Shown: piece after piece, positions 36,637 through 54,900 of the stretch | How the letters are laid out: every line of letters begins with the position of its first letter | Numbering within the stretch: the first letter of the stretch is position 1 | Source of the DNA: Pirellulaceae bacterium | GTDB taxonomy: Bacteria > Planctomycetota > Planctomycetia > Pirellulales > Pirellulaceae | DNA: 64,000 bases | Reading direction: 5' to 3' | Assembly: GCA_024102795.1 (NCBI GenBank) | Contig: JAGFJK010000430.1 | Coordinates: 1 to 64,000 of the forward strand | The notes under the pieces: model-generated | Database searches by the model: none | What the model saw: only the letters and a program-made list of their open reading frames with translations | What the model was told of the DNA's origin: nothing | Translations under genes and position numbers: made by a program

Positions 36637-36787
36637 ATGCTCCACGCGGCTATTCCGCTCGATACCTGTCAGGCAATGTACAAGCGGGCGGCTGACGACG
36701 CCCTCGGCCGGCCACGCCAAGGCCCGCGTCGAGGCGGCAAAGGCCAAGGTGGAAGCGATGACTCTGGGGACGAAGCCGGCGACATGA
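36637..36787 (+). pseudogene. Probable frameshifted small gene
   Basis: One frame from ATG 36637 reads AMYKRAADDAL (ending near 36705). From about 36710 a different frame reads GHAKARVEAAKAKVEAM and ends at TGA 36785-36787. Joined, they would make a short coiled-coil-like protein, so a single-base indel in the GC-rich stretch around 36700-36712 is suspected. The stop overlaps the next ATG as ATGA, as expected of a genuine small operon member. A sequencing error or a coincidental match cannot be excluded. Confidence 0.35.
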
Positions 36788-36903
36788 GCATGAGCGAATT
36801 CCCAACAATGCGGGTTGATCGCTCCCAGTCGCAATCGGTCGAACCGCTGGAAAGCAAGCCAAAGTTCTGGTTTCGCCTCGTCGAGGAGGCCACCGCGCGA
36901 TGA
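36784..36903 (+). CDS. Very small ORF (39 aa) linked by ATGA overlaps
   Basis: A 39-residue frame, MSMSEFPTMRVDRSQSQSV through PKFWFRLVEEATAR. Its ATG overlaps the preceding stop (ATGA at 36784-36787) and its own stop overlaps the ATG of the DUF6883 gene (ATGA at 36900-36903). Two consecutive 4-bp overlaps argue for translational coupling and against chance. No family recognised; it may be an antitoxin-like or leader peptide of the DUF6883/DUF4926 unit. An alternative reading in the same frame extends upstream to GTG 36514. Confidence 0.4.
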   Translation: MSMSEFPTMRVDRSQSQSVEPLESKPKFWFRLVEEATAR

Positions 36904-37232
36904 AGCTTCCGAACGCCGAACACGCAGTAGTCGAGATGCAAAAGCTCGTGGACTATTGCCTCGACCCAGATCACCCGCGCGGAAAACACAAGGCCCGCGT
37001 CTTTCTGTCGTCCTGCGGATTGACGGCCGAACATGCTGACGAATTACGTGTCGCTCTGTTGAACGCGGCCCAGAATCTCGACACCGAGTTGGGCGAACAA
37101 GATGACTACGGGCAGCGATACGTGATAGACTTGGAAGTGAGGGGACCGGCGGGAACGGCTCAGGTCCGAAGCGCCTGGATCATTCGCAAGGGTGAGGACT
37201 ATCCGCGATTTGTTTCTTGTTACGTACTGTAG
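36900..37232 (+). CDS. DUF6883 domain protein
   Basis: A 110-residue soluble protein matching in pattern the DUF6883 family: KLPNAEHAVVEMQKLVDYCL at the start, then DHPRGKHKARVFLSSCGL and a C-terminal half with WIIRKGEDYPRFVSCYVL. Proteins of this family occur alone or as C-terminal domains and are often next to DUF4926 genes, as here (3 bp gap). That arrangement suggests a toxin-immunity or toxin-antitoxin-like pair, but neither biochemical activity nor catalytic residues are established to my knowledge. The start is set by the ATGA overlap with the 39-aa ORF. Full length for the family. Confidence 0.75.
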   Translation: MKLPNAEHAVVEMQKLVDYCLDPDHPRGKHKARVFLSSCGLTAEHADELRVALLNAAQNLDTELGEQDDYGQRYVIDLEVRGPAGTAQVRSAWIIRKGEDYPRFVSCYVL

Positions 37233-37235
37233 GCG

Positions 37236-37463
37236 ATGACCATGAACGATCAACAATTCAAGCTTCTCGACGTTGTCGCTTTGACGAATGACCTGCCCCA
37301 ACGCGGCTTGGTCCGTGGTCAAGTTGGCACAATTGTTGAAACATTACCTCCCGATGCCTTTGAAGTGGAATTCTGCGATAACGACGGCCGAACGTACGCA
37401 ATGCTGGCGCTAAAGGCGTCCCAACTGATGTTGCTTCACCACGAACCGGTGGAAGCCACCTAG
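37236..37463 (+). CDS. DUF4926 domain protein
   Basis: A 75-residue protein with the DUF4926 pattern: FKLLDVVALTNDLPQRGLV, GQVGTIVETLPPDAFEVEF, CDNDGRTYAMLALKASQLM. The predicted fold is a small SH3-like beta-barrel. It begins 3 bp after the DUF6883 stop and may be the cognate binding or immunity partner (inferred from recurrent adjacency). A second in-frame ATG two codons in (37242) is possible. The gene is complete. Confidence 0.78.
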   Translation: MTMNDQQFKLLDVVALTNDLPQRGLVRGQVGTIVETLPPDAFEVEFCDNDGRTYAMLALKASQLMLLHHEPVEAT

Positions 37464-37571
37464 ATCGTGGCGACGGATTGGGAGATTGACGCGGGCTAGG
37501 CAAAAGTTTGATTGCCGGCTAAGGCGGTTGCCCCGTCCGGCCGAAGCCGAGACGCAATGAAAGGCAACATC

Positions 37572-38659: not shown

Positions 38660-38678
38660 GGGCCACGCCGTGTGGCCC
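38660..38678. promoter_or_regulatory. Palindrome upstream of the excisionase-like gene (possible operator)
   Basis: GGGCCAC, loop GCCGT, GTGGCCC: a perfect 7-bp dyad ending 14 bp before ATG 38693. Its position just before a HTH gene suits an operator or a start-proximal hairpin. No T-run, so not a terminator. Confidence 0.4.
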
Positions 38679-38692
38679 ATTCGAGGACTCAC

Positions 38693-38938
38693 ATGGAGCG
38701 AATGACGATGGCAACGCAAATCGTGCAATCCCTGGCCCTCCGCCCGCGCGAAGCGGCGAAGGCCCTGGGCATTTCCGCCCGCACGCTCTGGGGACTTACG
38801 GCCCCGCGAGGCCCGATTCCCTGCCTGCGGATCGGCCACGGCAAGCGACAAACCGTGCTGTACCCCGTGGCCGAGTTGCAAGCGTGGCTGAGCCGGCAAG
38901 CCGAAGCCGAGAAAGGGGGCGACGATGACGCCCGTTGA
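38693..38938 (+). CDS. Excisionase/AlpA-like helix-turn-helix protein
   Basis: An 81-residue DNA-binding protein. LRPREAAKALGISARTLWGL is a MerR/excisionase-type HTH; then CLRIGHGKRQTVLYPVAELQ, the wing with the typical strand-Pro-helix pattern, and a charged tail (SRQAEAEKGGDDDAR). Small proteins like this direct excision or activate integrase in integrative elements. ATG 38693 is preceded by GAGG at 7 nt; in-frame ATGs at 38702 and 38708 are alternatives. Its end overlaps the following primase gene by 14 bp, so the two are coupled. It probably cooperates with the integrase 3 kb downstream. Confidence 0.75.
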   Translation: MERMTMATQIVQSLALRPREAAKALGISARTLWGLTAPRGPIPCLRIGHGKRQTVLYPVAELQAWLSRQAEAEKGGDDDAR

Positions 38939-41136
38939 ACGGCTGTTGGCCAAGCTGCCCGACGCCAAGCAAGCCGTCAAGGGCTGGTCGGCGCGCTGCC
39001 CGGCCCATGAAGACCGACGGGCGAGCCTGTCCATTGGCGAAGGGGAAGACGGCCGGGCGCTGGTCAAGTGCCACGCCGGCTGCAAACCCGATGCAATCTG
39101 CGCGGCGGTCGGCCTGCGCGTGGTGGACCTGATGCCCACGGCCGATACGTTGCCGAAGCCGAGCAAGCCCAGGGGCAACGGCAAGCCCCGCATCGTCGCC
39201 CAGTACGATTACCGCGACGAAGCCGGCAACGTGCTGTTTCAAGCCGTGCGATTCGATCCGAAGGATTTTCGGCAACGGCGGCCGAAGCCCGGCGGTGGCT
39301 GGGAGTGGAGCGTCAAAGGGGTGCGCGTAGTTCCCTATCGGCTGCCGGAACTACTTGCCGAGCCGGCGCGGGCGGTGGTGGTTGCCGAAGGGGAGAAGGA
39401 TTGCGACAACCTTGCGCGTATGGGCGTATTGGCGACCTGCAACGCCAGCGGCGCGGGGAAGTGGACGGCCGAGCATTCGGCATTCCTGCGCGGCCGGCGG
39501 GACGAACGACGAACTGAAACGGCTGGCCGAAGCCGCGCCCGTTTGGACACCCGACGCGCAGCCGTGGCCGGAAATCATTTCTTTCGGCGTGATGGACCTG
39601 CCCAACTTTCCGACGCACGTATTGCCCGACGCGCTGCGGCGATGGGTGGAAGCCGAGTCGCACGCCACGCAAACGCCGGCGGACCTGGCGGCGCTGTTGG
39701 CGTTGTCGGTTTGCTCCGTCGGAATCGCCCGGCGCGTGGTGGTGGAACCTCGCCCCGGCTGGCGCGAGCCCGTGAACCTGTTTACGGCCGTGCTGCTTGA
39801 ACCTGGAAACCGCAAGTCTGCCGTCTTCGCCGATGCGATGAAACCGCTTCGCGAGTTGGAAGCGGAGATGATCGAAGCTGCGCGGCCGGAAGTGGCCCGC
39901 GCACAATCCGACCGGCGGCAAGATGAAGCCCGACTGCGGAAACTGGAAAAGACGGCGGCCGAGAAACACGGCGACGAAGCCGCGCAAGCCCGACACGATG
40001 CCGGCAACCTGGCGGCGGACCTGGCCGACGGGGCCGAGCCGGTCTTGCCCCGGTTGATTGTCGATGATGCCACGGCGGAAAAGCTGGGCATCATGCTGGC
40101 CGAGCAAGGCGGACGCATCGCCAGTATGTCGCCCGAAGGGGGCGTGTTTGACCTGATGGCCGGCTTGTATTCCAAGAGCGGCATTCCGCAATTCGGCGTG
40201 TACCTGATGGGGCATTCCGGCGATGACCTGATTACGGATCGGGTGAGCCGCAAGAGCGTGCGCGTGGAACGGCCAGCGCTGACGTGCGCCTACGCGATGC
40301 AGCCGGCAGTCATCGAGGGGCTGGCCGAGAATGCGGCCTTTCGCGGGCGGGGGCTGCTGGCCCGGTTTCTCTACGCGGCCCCGCAAAGCTGGATTGGCCG
40401 GCGGGAAATCGCGCCCGCGCCGGTTTCCGACGCCACGCGGGAAGCGTATCGCCAAGCGGTGCGGGCGCTGGCCGAACTCGAAGGCGAAATCGTCTTGCAA
40501 CTGTCGGCCGGCGCGGCGGCCTTACTCCGCGATTGGGAAGCCGAAGTCGAAGCGATGTTGGCCGAAGGCGGGCAAATGGAAATCATGCGAGATTGGGGCG
40601 CGAAGCTGGCCGGCGCAACGCTGCGACTGGCGGCCGTGCTGCATTGCGTGGATCATGGCCCGGCCGGGCACATCGAGGGGCCGACCATCGCGGCGGCGGT
40701 GGAAATCTCCCGCTATCTGGTTCCGCACGCCGAAGCCGTGCTGAACATGATGTTGGCCAGCGAAGAAACTTCCGACGATGACGCCCGCTATGTCTTGCGG
40801 TGGATCGAACGCCACGGCCGGCGGGAGTTCACCAAGCGGGACGCCCAACAACACGGCAAGCGGCGATTCCCAAAGGCCGATGACATTGACCCCGCGTTAG
40901 CCGAACTGACGCGGCGAGGATACATCCGGCTGCGGCCGGTTGAAGCGAGCGGCCCCGGCCGGCCCCCGTCGCCCACGTTCGACGTGAACCCGGCGACGCT
41001 TGCCGACGCGAAGCCTGAAAAGTGTTCTCACAATTCCCACAATTCGCCCGTCGAACCGGAAAGCGGCAATTCTGGGAATATCAAGAGCGCTCTGGAGCAG
41101 ACTGAAAACACGAACCGCGTGCGGGTGACGATATGA
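38925..41136 (+). pseudogene. Primase (CHC2 zinc finger/TOPRIM)-DUF3987 helicase gene, broken by an internal deletion
   Basis: The N-terminal part (38925 to ~39500) has a CHC2-like zinc site, C25, H28, C49 and C53 (RCPAHEDRRASLSIG, KCHAGC), then the TOPRIM start AEGEKDCDNLARMG and GAGKW. At 39490-39501 the frame changes and continues to 41136 with AAGGTNDELKRL and a DUF3987 ATPase-like domain: EPGNRKSAVF as a degenerate P-loop, then GGRIASMSPEGGVFDLMAG. The expected rest of TOPRIM, including the metal-binding V-V-L-P-D-N-D segment and G-D-V-S-D-W, is absent. The joint reads GCGGCCGGCGGG, which could encode either flank (RGRR or AAGG), so a deletion between short direct repeats explains both the loss and the frameshift. 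Replicative primase function is probably lost; the DUF3987 part might still be translated from an internal Met. Confidence 0.75.
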
Positions 41137-41498
41137 CGCGCACGCCTTCCACACTCGCCGACCTGTTGGCCGACTGCGACGCTCACGGAATCCGGCTTGC
41201 GCTGGCTGATGGCGACGGGCTGGCAATCGACGCCCCGCAAGACGCCCTGACTCCCGACCTGTTGGCCCGGCTGAAAGCCCACAAGGCCGACTTGCTGGCC
41301 ATGCTGCGGTCCGCGCCCGAAGTGACCCTCAACAACCAAGCCGATGCGGCGGCGGTCTGGCAAGCGGCCCTGGATCGGCTGGATGGTGACCCGCTGTTTC
41401 CGGCCGATGTGATGGAAGCCATGCGGGCGGCAGAGGCCCGATGGATTGACGATGTGAACGATTGCGAACCGAGAATAACTACTAGACACAACGGATAG
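41133..41498 (+). CDS. Small protein with TubC N-terminal docking-like domain
   Basis: A 121-residue protein. Residues ~6-55 (TLADLLADCDAHGIRLALAD, DGLAIDAPQDAL, LLARLKAHKADLLAML) match the TubC_N docking-domain pattern, a small alpha/beta fold that mediates protein-protein contacts. In mobile elements it occurs after primase genes, as here, and is unlikely to act in polyketide synthesis. The C-terminal half is helical and acidic with no motif. ATG 41133 overlaps the stop of the primase gene (ATGA), implying translational coupling to the DUF3987 part and supporting continued expression of that 3' region. Confidence 0.68.
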   Translation: MTRTPSTLADLLADCDAHGIRLALADGDGLAIDAPQDALTPDLLARLKAHKADLLAMLRSAPEVTLNNQADAAAVWQAALDRLDGDPLFPADVMEAMRAAEARWIDDVNDCEPRITTRHNG

Positions 41499-41517
41499 TA
41501 TCGGCGATAATCTGGAC

Positions 41518-41751
41518 ATGGCGAAGAAACGAACAAGAAGCAAAAAGCTGACTGACCAGTTGCGGCAGGCAATCGACGATTCCGGCATGACGCGGTATCG
41601 CATCGCCCAGGAAACCGGAATCAGCGAAGCGACATTGAGCAAGTTCTACTTGGGCCAGCGGGGGCTTTCGATGGAAGCCTTGAACGCCTTGGGCGAGTGT
41701 TTGCAACTGACAATTCACCTGGGCCGCAAGCCCGAACAGAAAGGTAAGTGA
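41518..41751 (+). CDS. XRE-family helix-turn-helix regulator
   Basis: A 77-residue DNA-binding protein. A basic N-terminus (MAKKRTRSKKL) leads into LRQAIDDSGMTRYRIAQETG and ISEATLSKFYLGQRGLS, the Cro/C1-type HTH with the recognition helix around ATLSKF. It ends just before the integrase ATG (3 bp gap), so it probably controls or is co-transcribed with integrase. Complete and standard in size. It may act as the element's repressor or as a small transcription activator. Confidence 0.82.
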   Translation: MAKKRTRSKKLTDQLRQAIDDSGMTRYRIAQETGISEATLSKFYLGQRGLSMEALNALGECLQLTIHLGRKPEQKGK

Positions 41752-41754
41752 ACG

Positions 41755-43107
41755 ATGGCTAGCATCGCCAAAGATAGGAACGGCACTCGGCGGATTCTTT
41801 TCGTGGCCCCCGACGGGCGGCGGCCGACGATCCGGCTGGGCAAGGTTTCCCAGCGGGCGGCTGAGAGCATCAAGTACCGCGTGGAGCAACTGCTTGAAGC
41901 GCTTAATCTCAAACGCCCGATGGAAGCTGACTTGGCCCAATGGGTAACGGACCTGGAACCGTGGTTGGCCAAGAGGCTTGCGGCTGCGGGATTGATTGCC
42001 AACCCCGAAGCCAAGGCGGCGGCAACGCTGGGGCCGTTTCTGACGGACTTTGTGGAACGTCGCATCGACGTGAAGCCGGCGACGAAAGAAGTATGGTCGC
42101 AAGTGGTGCGGAACCTTGAGGACCATTTCGGCGGGGATCGGGACTTGGCCGACGTGACCGAAGCCGACGCCGAAGACTTCAAGATGTACCTTGTAGGGCA
42201 AAAGCTGGCGCCGACCACGGTTGCCAAGCGACTGCAATTCGCCCGCATGTTCTTCAAGGCGGCGAAGAAACGAAAGCTGATTGCCAACAACCCATTCGCC
42301 GAAGTGTCGGCCAAAGCAGTAATGCGGCAGGATCGGCAGCGATTCATCACGCCAGAGGAAACCGACCGGCTGTTGGCGGTCTGCAATCCGACGTGGCGGG
42401 TAATCGTCGCCCTGTCGCGTTACGGTGGCCTGCGATGCCCCAGCGAAGTTCTCTCGCTCCGCTGGCAGGATGTTGATTGGGAGGCCGGCCGCATCGTGGT
42501 GCAATCGCCGAAGACGGAACATCACGTTGGCAAGGCGAGTCGCACCATACCGCTATTCGCCGAACTGCGGCCGATCCTGTCCGAAGCCTTCGACCTGGCC
42601 CCCGACGGCGCGGTGTACGTTGTGGACGGCAACCACCGCGAAGCGGCGAACACGGCGAGCGGCTGGCGGAATTGCAATCTGCGAACGCAATTCGAGCGGA
42701 TCGTCAAGCGCGCCGGCCTACAACCCTGGCCCCGGCTGTTCCACGCCATGCGGGCGAGCCGTGAAACCGAACTGGCGAAGGAATACCCGATCCACGTTGT
42801 AACCGCGTGGCTGGGCAACACGCCCCGCATCGCCTTGAAGCATTACCTGCAAGTGACCGACGCCGACTTTGAACGGGCGGCGGAAGCGTCAAAGGAAGGC
42901 GGCGCAGAAAGCGGCGCACGAAGCGCACAAAATGCGGCGCAGAGGGGACGCGCCGCGAAGGGCGGGGAATCGCAAGAGGAAGGCGCAACCCCTGTTGGCT
43001 GCGCCGCTTTTGCGACTCCTGACGATACGCAACGTGTTACTACAAAAGGACTTAGCGGAGAGGACAGGATTCGAACCTGCGGACCAGTTACCCGGTCACG
43101 GATTTAG
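41755..43107 (+). CDS. Tyrosine-type site-specific integrase
   Basis: A 450-residue phage-type integrase that would cut and join DNA at the tRNA-Ser site. An N-terminal arm-binding region (~1-70) and a SAM-like core-binding domain (~85-190; TVAKRLQFARMFFKAAKKR) precede the catalytic domain. Active-site residues are R227 (YGGLRCPSE), H330 and R333 (FHAMRASRE) and the nucleophile Y364 (KHYLQV); the remaining conserved positions fit. After Y364 an extra ~85-residue Ala/Gly/Arg-rich tail runs to the stop. The last ~17 codons (SGEDRIRTCG onward) are the complement of the tRNA-Ser gene, so the natural C-terminus depends on the insertion junction. It follows the XRE gene by 3 bp. Confidence 0.92.
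   Translation: MASIAKDRNGTRRILFVAPDGRRPTIRLGKVSQRAAESIKYRVEQLLEALNLKRPMEADLAQWVTDLEPWLAKRLAAAGLIANPEAKAAATLGPFLTDFVERRIDVKPATKEVWSQVVRNLEDHFGGDRDLADVTEADAEDFKMYLVGQKLAPTTVAKRLQFARMFFKAAKKRKLIANNPFAEVSAKAVMRQDRQRFITPEETDRLLAVCNPTWRVIVALSRYGGLRCPSEVLSLRWQDVDWEAGRIVVQSPKTEHHVGKASRTIPLFAELRPILSEAFDLAPDGAVYVVDGNHREAANTASGWRNCNLRTQFERIVKRAGLQPWPRLFHAMRASRETELAKEYPIHVVTAWLGNTPRIALKHYLQVTDADFERAAEASKEGGAESGARSAQNAAQRGRAAKGGESQEEGATPVGCAAFATPDDTQRVTTKGLSGEDRIRTCGPVTRSRI
43056..43080. other. Likely attachment site (attR/attL side) at the tRNA-Ser 3' end
   Basis: The tRNA acceptor 3' half and T-arm coincide with the 3' end of the integrase gene, the usual recombination target of tyrosine integrases. 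The exact core length cannot be given because the second copy was not found in the window. Confidence 0.45.
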
Positions 43108-43142
43108 CAAACCCGCGCTTTCGACCACTCAGCCACCTCTCC
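43056..43142 (-). tRNA. tRNA-Ser(GCU)
   Basis: Read on the minus strand, GGAGAGG (43142-43136) pairs with CCTCTCC (43063-43057) as the acceptor stem, with discriminator G at 43056. The D-arm GGCTGAGTGG, the anticodon loop TTGCTAA with anticodon GCT (43108-43106), a long class II variable arm (GACCGGGTAACTGGTC) and the T-arm GCAGGTTCGAATCCTG are all present. The long variable arm fits serine. CCA is not encoded (CTA follows the discriminator), so it must be added enzymatically. The integrase gene overlaps its 3' half antisense, with its stop codon in the anticodon loop. Confidence 0.97.
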
Positions 43143-51900: not shown

Positions 51901-54900
51901 TCAACAGCAGTTCGCTCGCTCGGCTGGGCACGCTGCCGGGCACCACCACGGTCGGCGGCGCCATCACGGCAACGGCCGATCACGTGGGACGAACCACCAC
52001 TACGGCCGAAGGCGACGCGGAGGGTGCAAACGCCGCGTTCGGCGCGTCGCTGGCCCTGGCGACGGCCAACGATACGGCGCGGGCCACGACCCAGCGGAAC
52101 CTGGCGGCCGGCGGTTCGATCGGCTTCGTCTCGACCGCGCATACCGATTCGACCGCCCATTCGTCGGCCAGCGCCACCGGCGCCGAGGGCGACGACGGCG
52201 TCCCGAACAGCAGCGACGACGACATGGTCGAGCAGCAGGTGCAGTCGCAGTTGGACGTGGCCAACGACACGGCGACCGACAACGGCGCGGAGGATTCGGG
52301 CACCTCGACCGCACCGGAGACGGAAACGTCGGATGGCAAGCTGAGCGTGGCGGCGGCGATCACGGTGAACCTGGTCGATTCGCGGGCCGCTTCGTCGGTG
52401 GGCGACAACGTGACGCTGGTGGCCGGCGGCGACTTGCTGGTCGCTTCGTCTCACAACGCGGACGCTCGTTCCACATCCGACGCCAGCGCGATGCAGGCCG
52501 ATACGGGCATCGCGGCGGCCGTGACCTTCAGCCGAGTGGAGATCACCAACACGGCCACGGTCGAGCCCGGCGCGGACGTCACGGCCGCGGGCGTGACGCT
52601 GTCGGCCGGGATGCAGGACCTGGTCGATGATCAGACGCATACGTTGTTCTCCGAAGCCAGGTCCGGCGCCAGCGCCGACACGGTGGGCGTGGCCGGAGCG
52701 CTGTCGATCGCCATCGTGCGAACCGACACGTCGGCCGCGCTGGAAGGCGGTTCGACCACCGATGCCGACGGCGGCGATGCGAACCTGGTCGCCACCAGCC
52801 AGACGGACAGCACGTCGCGAGCCGTGCCGCTGGAACAGATCACGTCGGGCGAGAGCCTCGGAGTCGGCGCGTCGGTGGCGATTCATATCGTCGATCACTC
52901 GACGCGGGCCGAGGTGGAAGACGACGCAGCGCTGATTGGCACTCACGATCTGAACCTGGACGCCAGCTCGAACCAGACGACGACCACCACGGCGATCGGC
53001 GGCGCGGAGGGCGGCACGGCGATCACGCCCGTGGTGGCGATCTCGCTGGTCAACAGCAGCTCGCTCGCTCGGCTGGGCACGCTGCCGGGCACCACCACGG
53101 TCGGCGGCAACATCACGGCAGCGGCCGATCACGTGGGACGAACCACCACCACGGCCGAAGGCGACGCGGAAGGCGCGAGCGCCGCGTTCGGCGCGTCGCT
53201 GGCCCTGGCGACGGCCAACGATACGGCGCGGGCCACGACCGAGCGGAACCTGGCGGCCGGCGGTTCGATCGGCTTCGTCTCGACCGCTCATACCGATTCG
53301 ACCGCCCATTCGTCGGCCAGCGCCACCGGCGCCGAGGGCGACGACGGCGTGCCGAACAGCAGCGACGACGACATGGTCGAGCAGCAGGTGCAGTCGCAGT
53401 TGGACGTGGCCAACGACACGGCGACCAACAACGGCGCGGAGGATTCGGGCACGGCGACCGCACCGGAGACGGAGACTTCGGATGGCAAGCTGAGCGTGGC
53501 GGCGGCGATCACGGTGAACCTGATCGATTCGCGGGCCGCGTCGTCGGTGGGCGACAACGTGACGCTGGTGGCCGGCGGCGACCTGCTGGTCGCTTCGTCT
53601 CACAACGCGGACGCTCGTTCCACGTCGGACGCCAGCGCGATGCAGGCCGACACGGGCATCGCGGCGGCCGTGACCTTCAGCCGAGTGGAAATCACCAACA
53701 CGGCCACGGTCGAGCCCGGCGCGGACGTCACCGCCGCGGGTGTGACGCTGTCGGCGGACATGCAATTGGTGGGACGCGATTCGACACACGAGATCTGGTC
53801 CGAGGCCAAGTCCGGCGCGGGGGCCAGCAACGTGGGCGTCGCTGGTTCGCTGGCAATTTCCCTGGTCCAGACCAATACATTGGCCCGGATCGAAGAGCTG
53901 GCGGACGTTGACGCCGATGCGGGCGACACCACCTTGAAAGCTATCGGCCGCTCGCTGGTCACCACGCGGGCCGTGCCGCTCGAACACGGAACAACCGGCG
54001 AGAGCCTGGGCGTCGGCGCGTCGGCGGCGATCGCCATCATCAACCACGACGTGGTGGCCGAGGTGGTCGATGACGCGGTATTGGACAACACGGCCGATTT
54101 AACTCTGACGGCCGATTCGAACCAGCAGACATTGACCGAAGCCGTGGGCGGCACGGCGGGCGGCGTGGCGATCACGCCCGTGGTGGCGATTTCCCTGGTC
54201 GACAACGACGTGGCGGCACGCGTGGGCAGTTCCACAACCGCGGTCACGGCATCCGGAAACGTATCGCTGAACGCCTGGCACACGGCGGGCACATGGACCA
54301 GCGCCGCAGGCGACGCGGAGGGGACGAACGCCGCGATCGGCGCGGCGTTGGCACTGGCCGTGCCGCGGGATACCGTGACCGCCGCACTGCACCGCGACCT
54401 GCAGGCGGATGGCGCCGTGTCGCTGACCAGCTCGTCGCACACCTGGTCGGACGGGTACGCTTGGGCGAGCGCTCGCGGCGCCGCGGGCGACGATGGCATC
54501 ACGGGCAGTTCCGATGACGCGGGCGTCAACGACCAGGTGGACGCGCAGCGAAGCTTCGTCGACGGCGTGGCCACCGGCAACTCGCTGGAGGATACGGGAG
54601 CGGCCAGCACGCCATCGGCCGAAACCTCGGACGGCACGGTCAGCGTGGCGGCGGCAGTCAGCGTGAACATTGTGACCACGCAGGCCTGGTCCCAGATCGC
54701 CGACAACGTATCAGTGGTGGCTGGCGGGCAGTTGAGCGTTCTCGCGCGGCACAACGCGGACGCTCTTTCCAACGCTGACGGCCAGGCCACCAACGGCAAG
54801 GTCGGGATCGGCGCGGCGGTGGCGCTGAACCGGTTCGATTTGACGAATGTGGCATCGATCGGCAGCGGCGCGACGATCCAGGCCGATGGTGTCTCGGTGC

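What the first reader, a model, noticed from the sequence alone, without database searches (positions are those of the whole stretch)
36637..37463. Chain of tiny ATGA-overlapping genes ending in a DUF6883/DUF4926 pair
A frameshifted small ORF, a 39-aa ORF and DUF6883 are linked by two successive 4-bp overlaps, and DUF4926 follows after 3 bp. DUF6883 and DUF4926 genes recur as neighbours, a pattern typical of toxin-immunity or toxin-antitoxin partners. The extra 39-aa ORF could be a third component not normally annotated because of its size.
Basis: partly seen in the sequence, partly recalled or inferred. Interest (0 to 1): 0.52.

Follow-up and report, generated by a model that had tools for sequence, protein, structure and literature searches.

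The report
Toxin-antidote pair beside restriction-gene scars
The two small genes look like a ribonuclease toxin and its antidote, and the tiny open frames before them are not new genes but leftovers of restriction-enzyme and kinase genes, marking where such pairs are dropped in behind restriction genes.

Summary
The DUF6883/DUF4926 pair is real and most likely a BECR-fold RNase toxin with its immunity/antitoxin partner. Six of six provirus relatives carry DUF6883 as the C-terminal domain of a MuF head protein (a known polymorphic-toxin slot); the AlphaFold model (pLDDT 96.7) matches CdiA-CT tRNases best (Z 11.6), with their active-site residue types conserved. DUF4926 is a predicted SH3-like barrel that follows DUF6883 almost always. 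The 39-aa ORF is not a third component: its first 28 codons match HipA-like kinase N-termini, its last 9 codons plus stop match the 3' end of type IIG restriction-modification (RM) genes. The frameshifted ORF before it resembles a type I specificity-subunit C-terminus (tentative). The ATGA chain thus reads as two decayed 'RM tail + toxin module' units. In one relative the architecture is intact: a type IIG gene followed by DUF6883/4926, PIN, HicAB and ParE/Phd modules separated by ~100-bp copies of the RM gene's 3' end. Flanking direct repeats occur at 8 of 42 pairs versus 27 of 973 control points. Long target duplication is known for RM systems; here it, or tail-tail recombination, appears for toxin pairs. 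Function is inferred, not shown.

The parts
36710..36787 (+). End of the 'frameshifted small ORF': remnant resembling the C-terminus of a type I RM specificity subunit
   Evidence: 55 bp (36714-36768), 82% identical to G296:C67, inside a 233-aa open frame whose last 63 aa match the C-terminus of a 492-aa Methylase_S protein (36% over 50 aa, E 7.1e-5). The 233-aa frame itself has no Pfam match, so this label is tentative.
36784..36873 (+). Front of the 39-aa ORF: 5' fragment (28 aligned codons) of a HipA-like kinase gene
   Evidence: 68% aa identity to the N-terminus of L250/L243 (HipA_C E 2.4e-6, 27.8 bits against a cut-off of 30.5) and weaker matches to four more kinases; rest of the kinase absent from the window.
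36874..36903 (+). End of the 39-aa ORF (RLVEEATAR + stop): remnant of the 3' end of a type IIG RM gene, its TGA overlapping the DUF6883 ATG
   Evidence: 26 of 30 bases identical to L066 2975-3004, where it is the end of an intact tail (R)LVYELYGLTDEEIRIVEEAAAR, a sequence type that ends many TaqI_C RM genes. The tail profile alone scores it only -2.4 bits.
36900..37232 (+). DUF6883 protein, 110 aa: predicted BECR-fold RNase toxin
   Evidence: Pfam PF21814; MuF fusions; AF2 model and fold matches; active-site columns.
37236..37463 (+). DUF4926 protein, 75 aa (73 from 37242): predicted SH3-like immunity/antitoxin partner
   Evidence: Pfam PF16277; adjacency and co-occurrence; AF2 model pLDDT 88.7 with SH3/KOW-type matches.
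37464..37493 (+). Remnant of the front part of the same type of RM tail (IVATDWEIDA) just after the DUF4926 stop
   Evidence: 5.3 bits with a profile of 15 type IIG tails, above the best of 602 control chunk-strands of the window (3.3); BLAST alignment with L066 extends to 37490.

Best explanation
DUF6883 is a small RNase toxin of the BECR fold (nearest solved relatives: the CdiA-CT tRNase domains of Kp342 and EC3006) and DUF4926 is the SH3-like protein that neutralises it, probably by binding over the active site. The pair moves as a module of about 0.6 kb that lands directly behind the 3' ends of other genes, in several cases type IIG RM genes, leaving copies of that 3' end on both sides. 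The RM stop codon overlaps the toxin's start codon, so toxin translation may be coupled to the upstream frame. In this window the site has decayed: a type I RM tail end, a HipA-like kinase 5' fragment and a type IIG tail end now form the 'chain of tiny genes'. Shown by computation: homologies, repeats, fold prediction, linkage. Inferred: RNase activity, tRNA as target, neutralisation by DUF4926, mode of movement.
For: Toxin: DUF6883 is C-terminal to Phage_Mu_F in 6 of 6 provirus loci found and lies in a 'minor capsid protein' among phage genes on a plasmid; model pLDDT 96.7, three helices plus a four-strand meander; top PDB matches 6cp9_G CdiA-CT Kp342 (Z 11.6, rmsd 2.4, 100 aligned) and 6cp8/6vek CdiA-CT EC3006 (Z 9.8), then RelE/HigB-type toxins; published active sites K157/Y160/H170/R252/T255 and K204/Y208/H256/R260/T330 correspond in type to K15 (42 of 42 rows with a residue), Y19 (43/43), H25 (38/39), R103 (36/41), S/T106 (36/39). 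Partner: 28 of 28 DUF6883 genomes have DUF4926 versus 11 of 260 others; 41 of 43 DUF6883 starts have DUF4926 downstream within 250 bp. Module: homology with the nearest relative covers only 36874-37490; flanking direct repeats 8 of 42 pairs versus 27 of 973 control points, p 4e-5; L073 array of RM tail copies with TA modules between.
Against: No toxicity, RNase or binding data. Only 2 of the 6 provirus loci show a DUF4926-like next gene (L240 E 2.5e-11; L239 E 0.0013, below the curated cut-off). Type IIG tails were found in 6 of 45 DUF6883/DUF4926 loci, so most pairs lack this context, and none of the 4 plasmid loci has one. Window remnants are short: upstream pieces score 0.4 and -2.4 bits alone and the window has no tail hit at E 0.01. 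R103 is H or Q in 4 of 6 provirus copies.
Confidence: 0.76

Rival explanations
1. Three-component system: the 39-aa ORF is a genuine small protein (leader, chaperone or third partner) made with the toxin pair.
For: Intact 39-codon frame with a 4-bp overlap to DUF6883. Tail-derived frames end exactly at the toxin start in L066, L071, L072 and L073 too, so a coupling leader is conceivable.
Against: Peptide absent upstream of other DUF6883 genes except for 9 residues in L066; its front is a kinase N-terminus; frames of this size ending at an ATGA occur at 9 of 232 sites in the window.
Confidence: 0.06
2. The flanking repeats come from movement by homologous recombination between RM tails: a cassette made of toxin pair plus tail enters at a resident tail by a single crossover, as in an integrase-free cassette array.
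For: A single crossover would give exactly tail-pair-tail (L066, L073). L073 tail copies keep their frame and differ from the resident tail with dN 0.05-0.10 against dS 0.24-0.54, more like pieces of working RM genes than neutral local copies. Different modules share one tail type.
Against: Repeats also flank pairs at non-RM sites (preA-like, mnmE-like, a secreted-protein gene), for which a tail-specific carrier is less natural. Counts per copy are small. Circles were not looked for.
Confidence: 0.45
3. The repeats come from insertion with long target duplication, as proposed for RM systems: the module inserts and about 50-170 bp of target is duplicated.
For: Repeat lengths 48-173 bp at varied target genes; literature describes long and variable target duplications of about 100 bp for RM systems (PMC3874152, PMC3031569 passages).
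Against: Repeat copies are 78-100% identical rather than identical, and L073 copies share residues that differ from the resident tail.
Confidence: 0.45
4. DUF6883 is a defence or housekeeping protein that merely sits near RM genes, not a toxin.
For: RM association in some loci; no experiment.
Against: MuF C-terminal position 6 of 6, BECR fold with a conserved active-site set, and occurrence in the same slots as HicAB, ParE/Phd and PIN modules.
Confidence: 0.1

Closest known systems
CdiA-CT/CdiI of Klebsiella pneumoniae 342 and E. coli 3006 (BECR tRNase toxin and immunity; PDB 6cp9, 6cp8)
   Same: Predicted fold over 94-100 residues (Z 9.8-11.6) and the K, Y, H, R, T residue set; two-gene toxin-antidote order.
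   Different: Stand-alone 110-aa protein without delivery domain here; immunity partner is a small SH3-like barrel, whereas a review describes CdiI Kp342 as mostly beta-strands and CdiI EC3006 as all-helical; tRNA target untested.
MuF polymorphic toxins of temperate phages
   Same: DUF6883 itself is the C-terminal domain of MuF proteins in 6 of 6 provirus loci.
   Different: In the window it stands alone, outside any head gene.
Type II toxin-antitoxin modules (HicAB, RelBE/ParDE, PIN/antitoxin)
   Same: Small two-gene modules; share array slots behind an RM gene in L073.
   Different: Toxin gene comes first; DUF4926 has no recognised DNA-binding domain; labile antitoxin behaviour untested.
RM systems inserting with long target duplication (Nobusato 2000, Furuta 2010, known here through citing papers)
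   Same: Direct repeats of the order of 100 bp around the insert.
   Different: The insert is a toxin pair, the duplicated target is in several cases an RM gene's 3' end, and inserts can form arrays.
Integron cassette arrays
   Same: Serial small cassettes separated by repeats.
   Different: The repeat is a protein-coding gene tail; attC sites and an integron integrase were not tested.

Membership tests
BECR-fold RNase toxins | N-terminal helices followed by a four-stranded meander | tested here: met
   AF2 model elements H13-20 H29-39 H43-59 E63-67 E71-82 E85-96 E103-109; best PDB matches are BECR toxins. Predicted model, not a solved structure.
BECR-fold RNase toxins | Active-site residues like those of CdiA-CT Kp342/EC3006 (K, Y, H, R, T) | tested here: met
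   K15, Y19, H25, R103, S/T106 conserved. The ends of the structural alignment (9-110 against 151-259) put K15 on K157, R103 on R252 and S106 on T255 if ungapped at the ends; coordinates were not superposed residue by residue here.
BECR-fold RNase toxins | RNA cleavage | not testable with these tools
   Needs purified protein and RNA.
Toxin-immunity / toxin-antitoxin pair | Adjacent co-oriented genes that co-occur across genomes | tested here: met
   41 of 43 starts within 250 bp; 28 of 28 versus 11 of 260 genomes.
Toxin-immunity / toxin-antitoxin pair | First protein toxic, second neutralises it | not testable with these tools
   Needs an expression assay.
MuF polymorphic toxin C-terminal domains | Fusion to Phage_Mu_F | tested here: met
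   Six of six provirus relatives (PF04233 below its curated cut-off in L236, L237, L241). Met by the domain family, not by the window copy itself, which stands alone.
Insertion with long target duplication | Direct repeats of target DNA flanking the insert | tested here: inconclusive
   8 of 42 pairs versus 27 of 973 control points. In the window itself no repeat is detectable any more; only two different pieces of one tail type.
Insertion with long target duplication | Empty target site in a close relative | not tested
   No sister strain pair with and without the insert was searched for.
Integron cassette | attC sites and integron integrase | not tested
   Not searched; the repeats found are coding 3' ends of RM genes.
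HipA-like kinase (39-aa ORF) | Kinase domain | tested here: not met
   Only 28 N-terminal codons present; the rest is absent from the window. It is a remnant, not a kinase.

The most novel reading that the evidence does not exclude
The 3' ends of restriction-modification genes serve as docking sites at which small toxin-antidote cassettes accumulate in arrays; each cassette carries or receives a copy of the RM gene's last ~100 bp, whose frame is kept and whose stop codon overlaps the next toxin's start, so that the tail copies act both as recombination sites and as translational couplers, and the toxins' addiction effect keeps the array from being lost.
Probability: 0.3. Interest if true: 0.8.

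Novelty: new variant of a known kind. Interest (0 to 1): 0.6.

Why it matters
It gives a testable function (RNase toxin and antidote) to two families of unknown function, DUF6883 and DUF4926; full-text searches of the held library found no paper naming DUF6883 and one naming DUF4926. It also suggests how toxin modules may enter genomes without a transposase or integrase of their own, behind defence genes, leaving coding repeats that gene finders report as tiny unexplained genes. Tail copies give a simple handle for finding further toxin pairs.

Tried and rejected
Rejected: 39-aa ORF as a conserved third gene. Pair as cargo of the tRNA-Ser element ending near 43107: no second copy of the tRNA end was found in the window, so the element's left end is unknown. 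A 33-aa tail query against the own genome found nothing; the tool warns that an empty answer shows nothing. Own Eco57I loci: 0 of 5 show a repeated 3' end. Tail profile on HicA loci: 1 of 30, and that one is the L073 locus again, so RM tails are not general for HicA, although flank repeats are commoner there (8 of 30 versus 1 of 30 response-regulator loci; several of the 8 are low-complexity or non-coding matches, about four look like real duplications). Sequence search of PDB: best E 1.8 for DUF6883 and 0.076 for DUF4926, not useful. PHROGs, NCBIfam and PADLOC: no match for the pair. The fold table of DUF4926 is crowded with SH3/KOW barrels and names no immunity protein. Not done: attC search, complex prediction, empty-site comparison.

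Full report
What is there. The pair is as described: DUF6883 at 36900-37232 and DUF4926 at 37236-37463. The genome is an 8.56-Mb, 519-contig assembly with three clear DUF6883 loci and four DUF4926 matches. The two small upstream frames exist, but the ATGA overlaps alone are weak evidence: 24 of 43 DUF6883 starts read ATGA and 9 of 232 ATGA sites in the window have an upstream ATG-started frame of at least 39 codons ending there.

The pair is linked across genomes. DUF6883 was found in 30 of 294 genomes of the phylum sample; all 30 also have DUF4926. In a second sample of 288 genomes DUF4926 occurs in 39; 28 of these are DUF6883-positive genomes (the other two positives, G289 and G292, do not appear in that sample), leaving 11 of 260 (Fisher p 3e-30). 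I counted DUF6883 starts in the window plus 45 loci (L066-L110), leaving out domain fragments that begin after profile position 10: 43 starts, of which 41 have DUF4926 downstream within 250 bp, one (L104) is interrupted by about 2 kb, and one (L087) has DUF4926 upstream instead. Pairs also occur on plasmids of Rubrobacter and three cyanobacteria (4 of 4 stand-alone cases opened, of 9 records listed).

DUF6883 is a toxin domain. A scan of viral contigs found six loci; in all six DUF6883 is the C-terminal domain of a Phage_Mu_F protein (PF04233 is below its curated cut-off in three, L236, L237 and L241). MuF proteins with variable C-terminal toxins are an established polymorphic-toxin class (PMC3482391, passages including the abstract; PMC5576092, search listing only). 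In L240 the next gene is DUF4926 (E 2.5e-11), in L239 a weak DUF4926 match (0.0013); in the other four none was seen. The AlphaFold model from 12 sequences has pLDDT 96.7 and three helices followed by a four-strand meander. Foldseek's only match below 0.001 is CdiA-CT of K. pneumoniae 342 (TM 0.70); VIA-align gives Z 11.6 (rmsd 2.4, 100 residues) for it, 9.8 for CdiA-CT of E. coli 3006, then RelE/HigB-type toxins at about 4-7. A review gives these two as tRNA-Ile nucleases with active sites K157/Y160/H170/R252/T255 and K204/Y208/H256/R260/T330 (PMC9086364, passages; PMC6851490, passages). In a 52-row alignment, counting rows that have a residue, DUF6883 keeps K15 in 42 of 42, Y19 in 43 of 43, H25 in 38 of 39, R103 in 36 of 41 and S/T106 in 36 of 39. 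In provirus copies R103 is H or Q in four of six. That the target is tRNA is inference. DUF4926 is predicted as a five-strand SH3/KOW-like barrel (pLDDT 88.7), a fit but not a proof of an immunity protein.

The tiny genes are remnants. The nearest relative (L066, a Binatia MAG, 79% protein identity) shares DNA with the window only from 36874 to 37490. In L066 the pair is flanked by a 65-bp direct repeat (100 bp in the wider alignment) coding for LVYELYGLTDEEIRIVEEAAA. The same kind of sequence ends many TaqI_C-type RM proteins in the phylum. The last 30 bases of the 39-aa ORF match the end of that tail in L066 at 26 of 30 positions, and the stretch after the DUF4926 stop (IVATDWEIDA) scores 5.3 bits with a profile of 15 such tails, above all 602 control chunk-strands of the window (maximum 3.3); the upstream pieces score only 0.4 and -2.4 by themselves, and nothing in the window passes E 0.01. 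The front of the 39-aa ORF (28 codons) matches N-termini of five HipA-like kinases, best 68% identity; HipA_C is hit at 2.4e-6, slightly below its cut-off. In two of these genomes the kinase follows an open frame with a type I specificity domain (L253 E 8e-25; L251 0.0038, below cut-off). The frameshifted ORF resembles a tail in G296 that itself matches the C-terminus of a Methylase_S protein; the 233-aa frame in G296 has no Pfam match, so this step is tentative. The window thus reads: type I tail end, ATGA, kinase fragment, type IIG tail end, ATGA, DUF6883-DUF4926, front of a type IIG tail.

The intact form. In L073 (G061) a type IIG RM gene (PADLOC REase_MTase_IIG, Pfam Eco57I) ends in a tail whose TGA overlaps the DUF6883 ATG; after DUF4926 follow four more copies of the tail, separated by a PIN toxin with an unassigned small protein, HicA/HicB and ParE/Phd-like pairs. 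Tail copies c3 and c4 overlap the next toxin start by GTGA; c2 and c5 do not abut a toxin start directly. Tail copies differ from the resident tail by dS 0.24-0.54 and dN 0.05-0.10 with frames kept. Type IIG tails were found in 6 of 45 DUF6883/DUF4926 loci (L066, L071, L072, L073, L075, L105; in L105 the pair is on the other strand), in 1 of 30 HicA loci (the L073 locus) and in 0 of 30 response-regulator loci (6/45 versus 0/30 p 0.04; the loci differ in length, so this is only a rough comparison).

From the RM side. I took 55 TaqI_C places from the upper part's list plus 5 Eco57I places of the own genome. A repeat of the last 220 bp downstream was found in 6 of 60: five clear (L129, L140, L151 and the near-identical L157/L159) and L123 weak and away from the gene end; none of the own five. 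Between the copies lie small gene pairs that look like RelBE, DUF433/DUF5615 and nucleotidyltransferase/HEPN modules, besides larger genes, and in L129 a small transposase-like gene (these labels are from recall, not from a family search).

Repeats in general. With one fixed geometry, 8 of 42 testable pairs have a direct repeat on both sides versus 27 of 973 control points in the same loci (E 1e-4; p 4e-5; one start skipped at a contig end); four of the control positives are the L073 array itself. Targets differ: RM tails, a PreA-like gene's 3' end (L070), an MnmE-like 3' end (L094) and the 5' part of a secreted-protein gene (L091) (PreA and MnmE are my reading of the sequences, from recall). 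HicA loci gave 8 of 30 against 1 of 30 response-regulator loci (p 0.013), but only about four of the eight look like real duplications.

Known background. RM systems are described as inserting with long and variable target duplications of the order of 100 bp (PMC3874152 and PMC3031569, passages; the 2010 paper was not held, and the 2000 paper was not looked up). SGI1 integrates at the 3' end of trmE (PMC8409611, abstract in listing). I did not find a description of toxin-antitoxin arrays separated by RM gene tails in the searches; this is no proof of absence.

Verdict. Pair: most likely a BECR RNase toxin with its immunity/antitoxin partner. Chain: remnants, not a third component. Architecture: a variant of insertion with long target duplication, or tail-tail recombination, applied to toxin modules behind RM genes; the two cannot be told apart with these data.

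Noticed in passing
window 38672-43142: Gene group with HTH_17, DUF3987, a TubC_N docking-like protein, a Cro-type regulator and a phage integrase whose 3' end overlaps a tRNA-Ser gene: looks like a small integrative element; its left end was not found.
   Followed up: partly
L075 10561-10710 (G000:C56): Another DUF6883/DUF4926 pair of the same genome has an orphan type IIG tail fragment (EAELDFIINYDIKYRMG) upstream, behind an ATPase-like gene.
   Followed up: partly
L129 1047-1629: A small transposase-like gene (looks like a REP-associated tyrosine transposase, from recall) sits between an RM gene's 3' end and a 39-bp copy of it.
   Followed up: no
L104 5401-7612: A DUF6883 gene split by about 2 kb of inserted DNA; several other planctomycete copies carry stops or frameshifts, suggesting fast turnover.
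   Followed up: no
L253 2245-3643, L251 2323-3310: HipA-like kinase genes directly behind type I specificity-subunit genes, in L253 with overlapping ends.
   Followed up: partly
L073 14592-15116: A second, broken DUF6883/DUF4926 copy lies between the SNF2-type helicase gene and the type IIG gene.
   Followed up: no
window 52400-53800: Repetitive long frame with near-identical internal repeats (216 bp at 95% in one control test).
   Followed up: no
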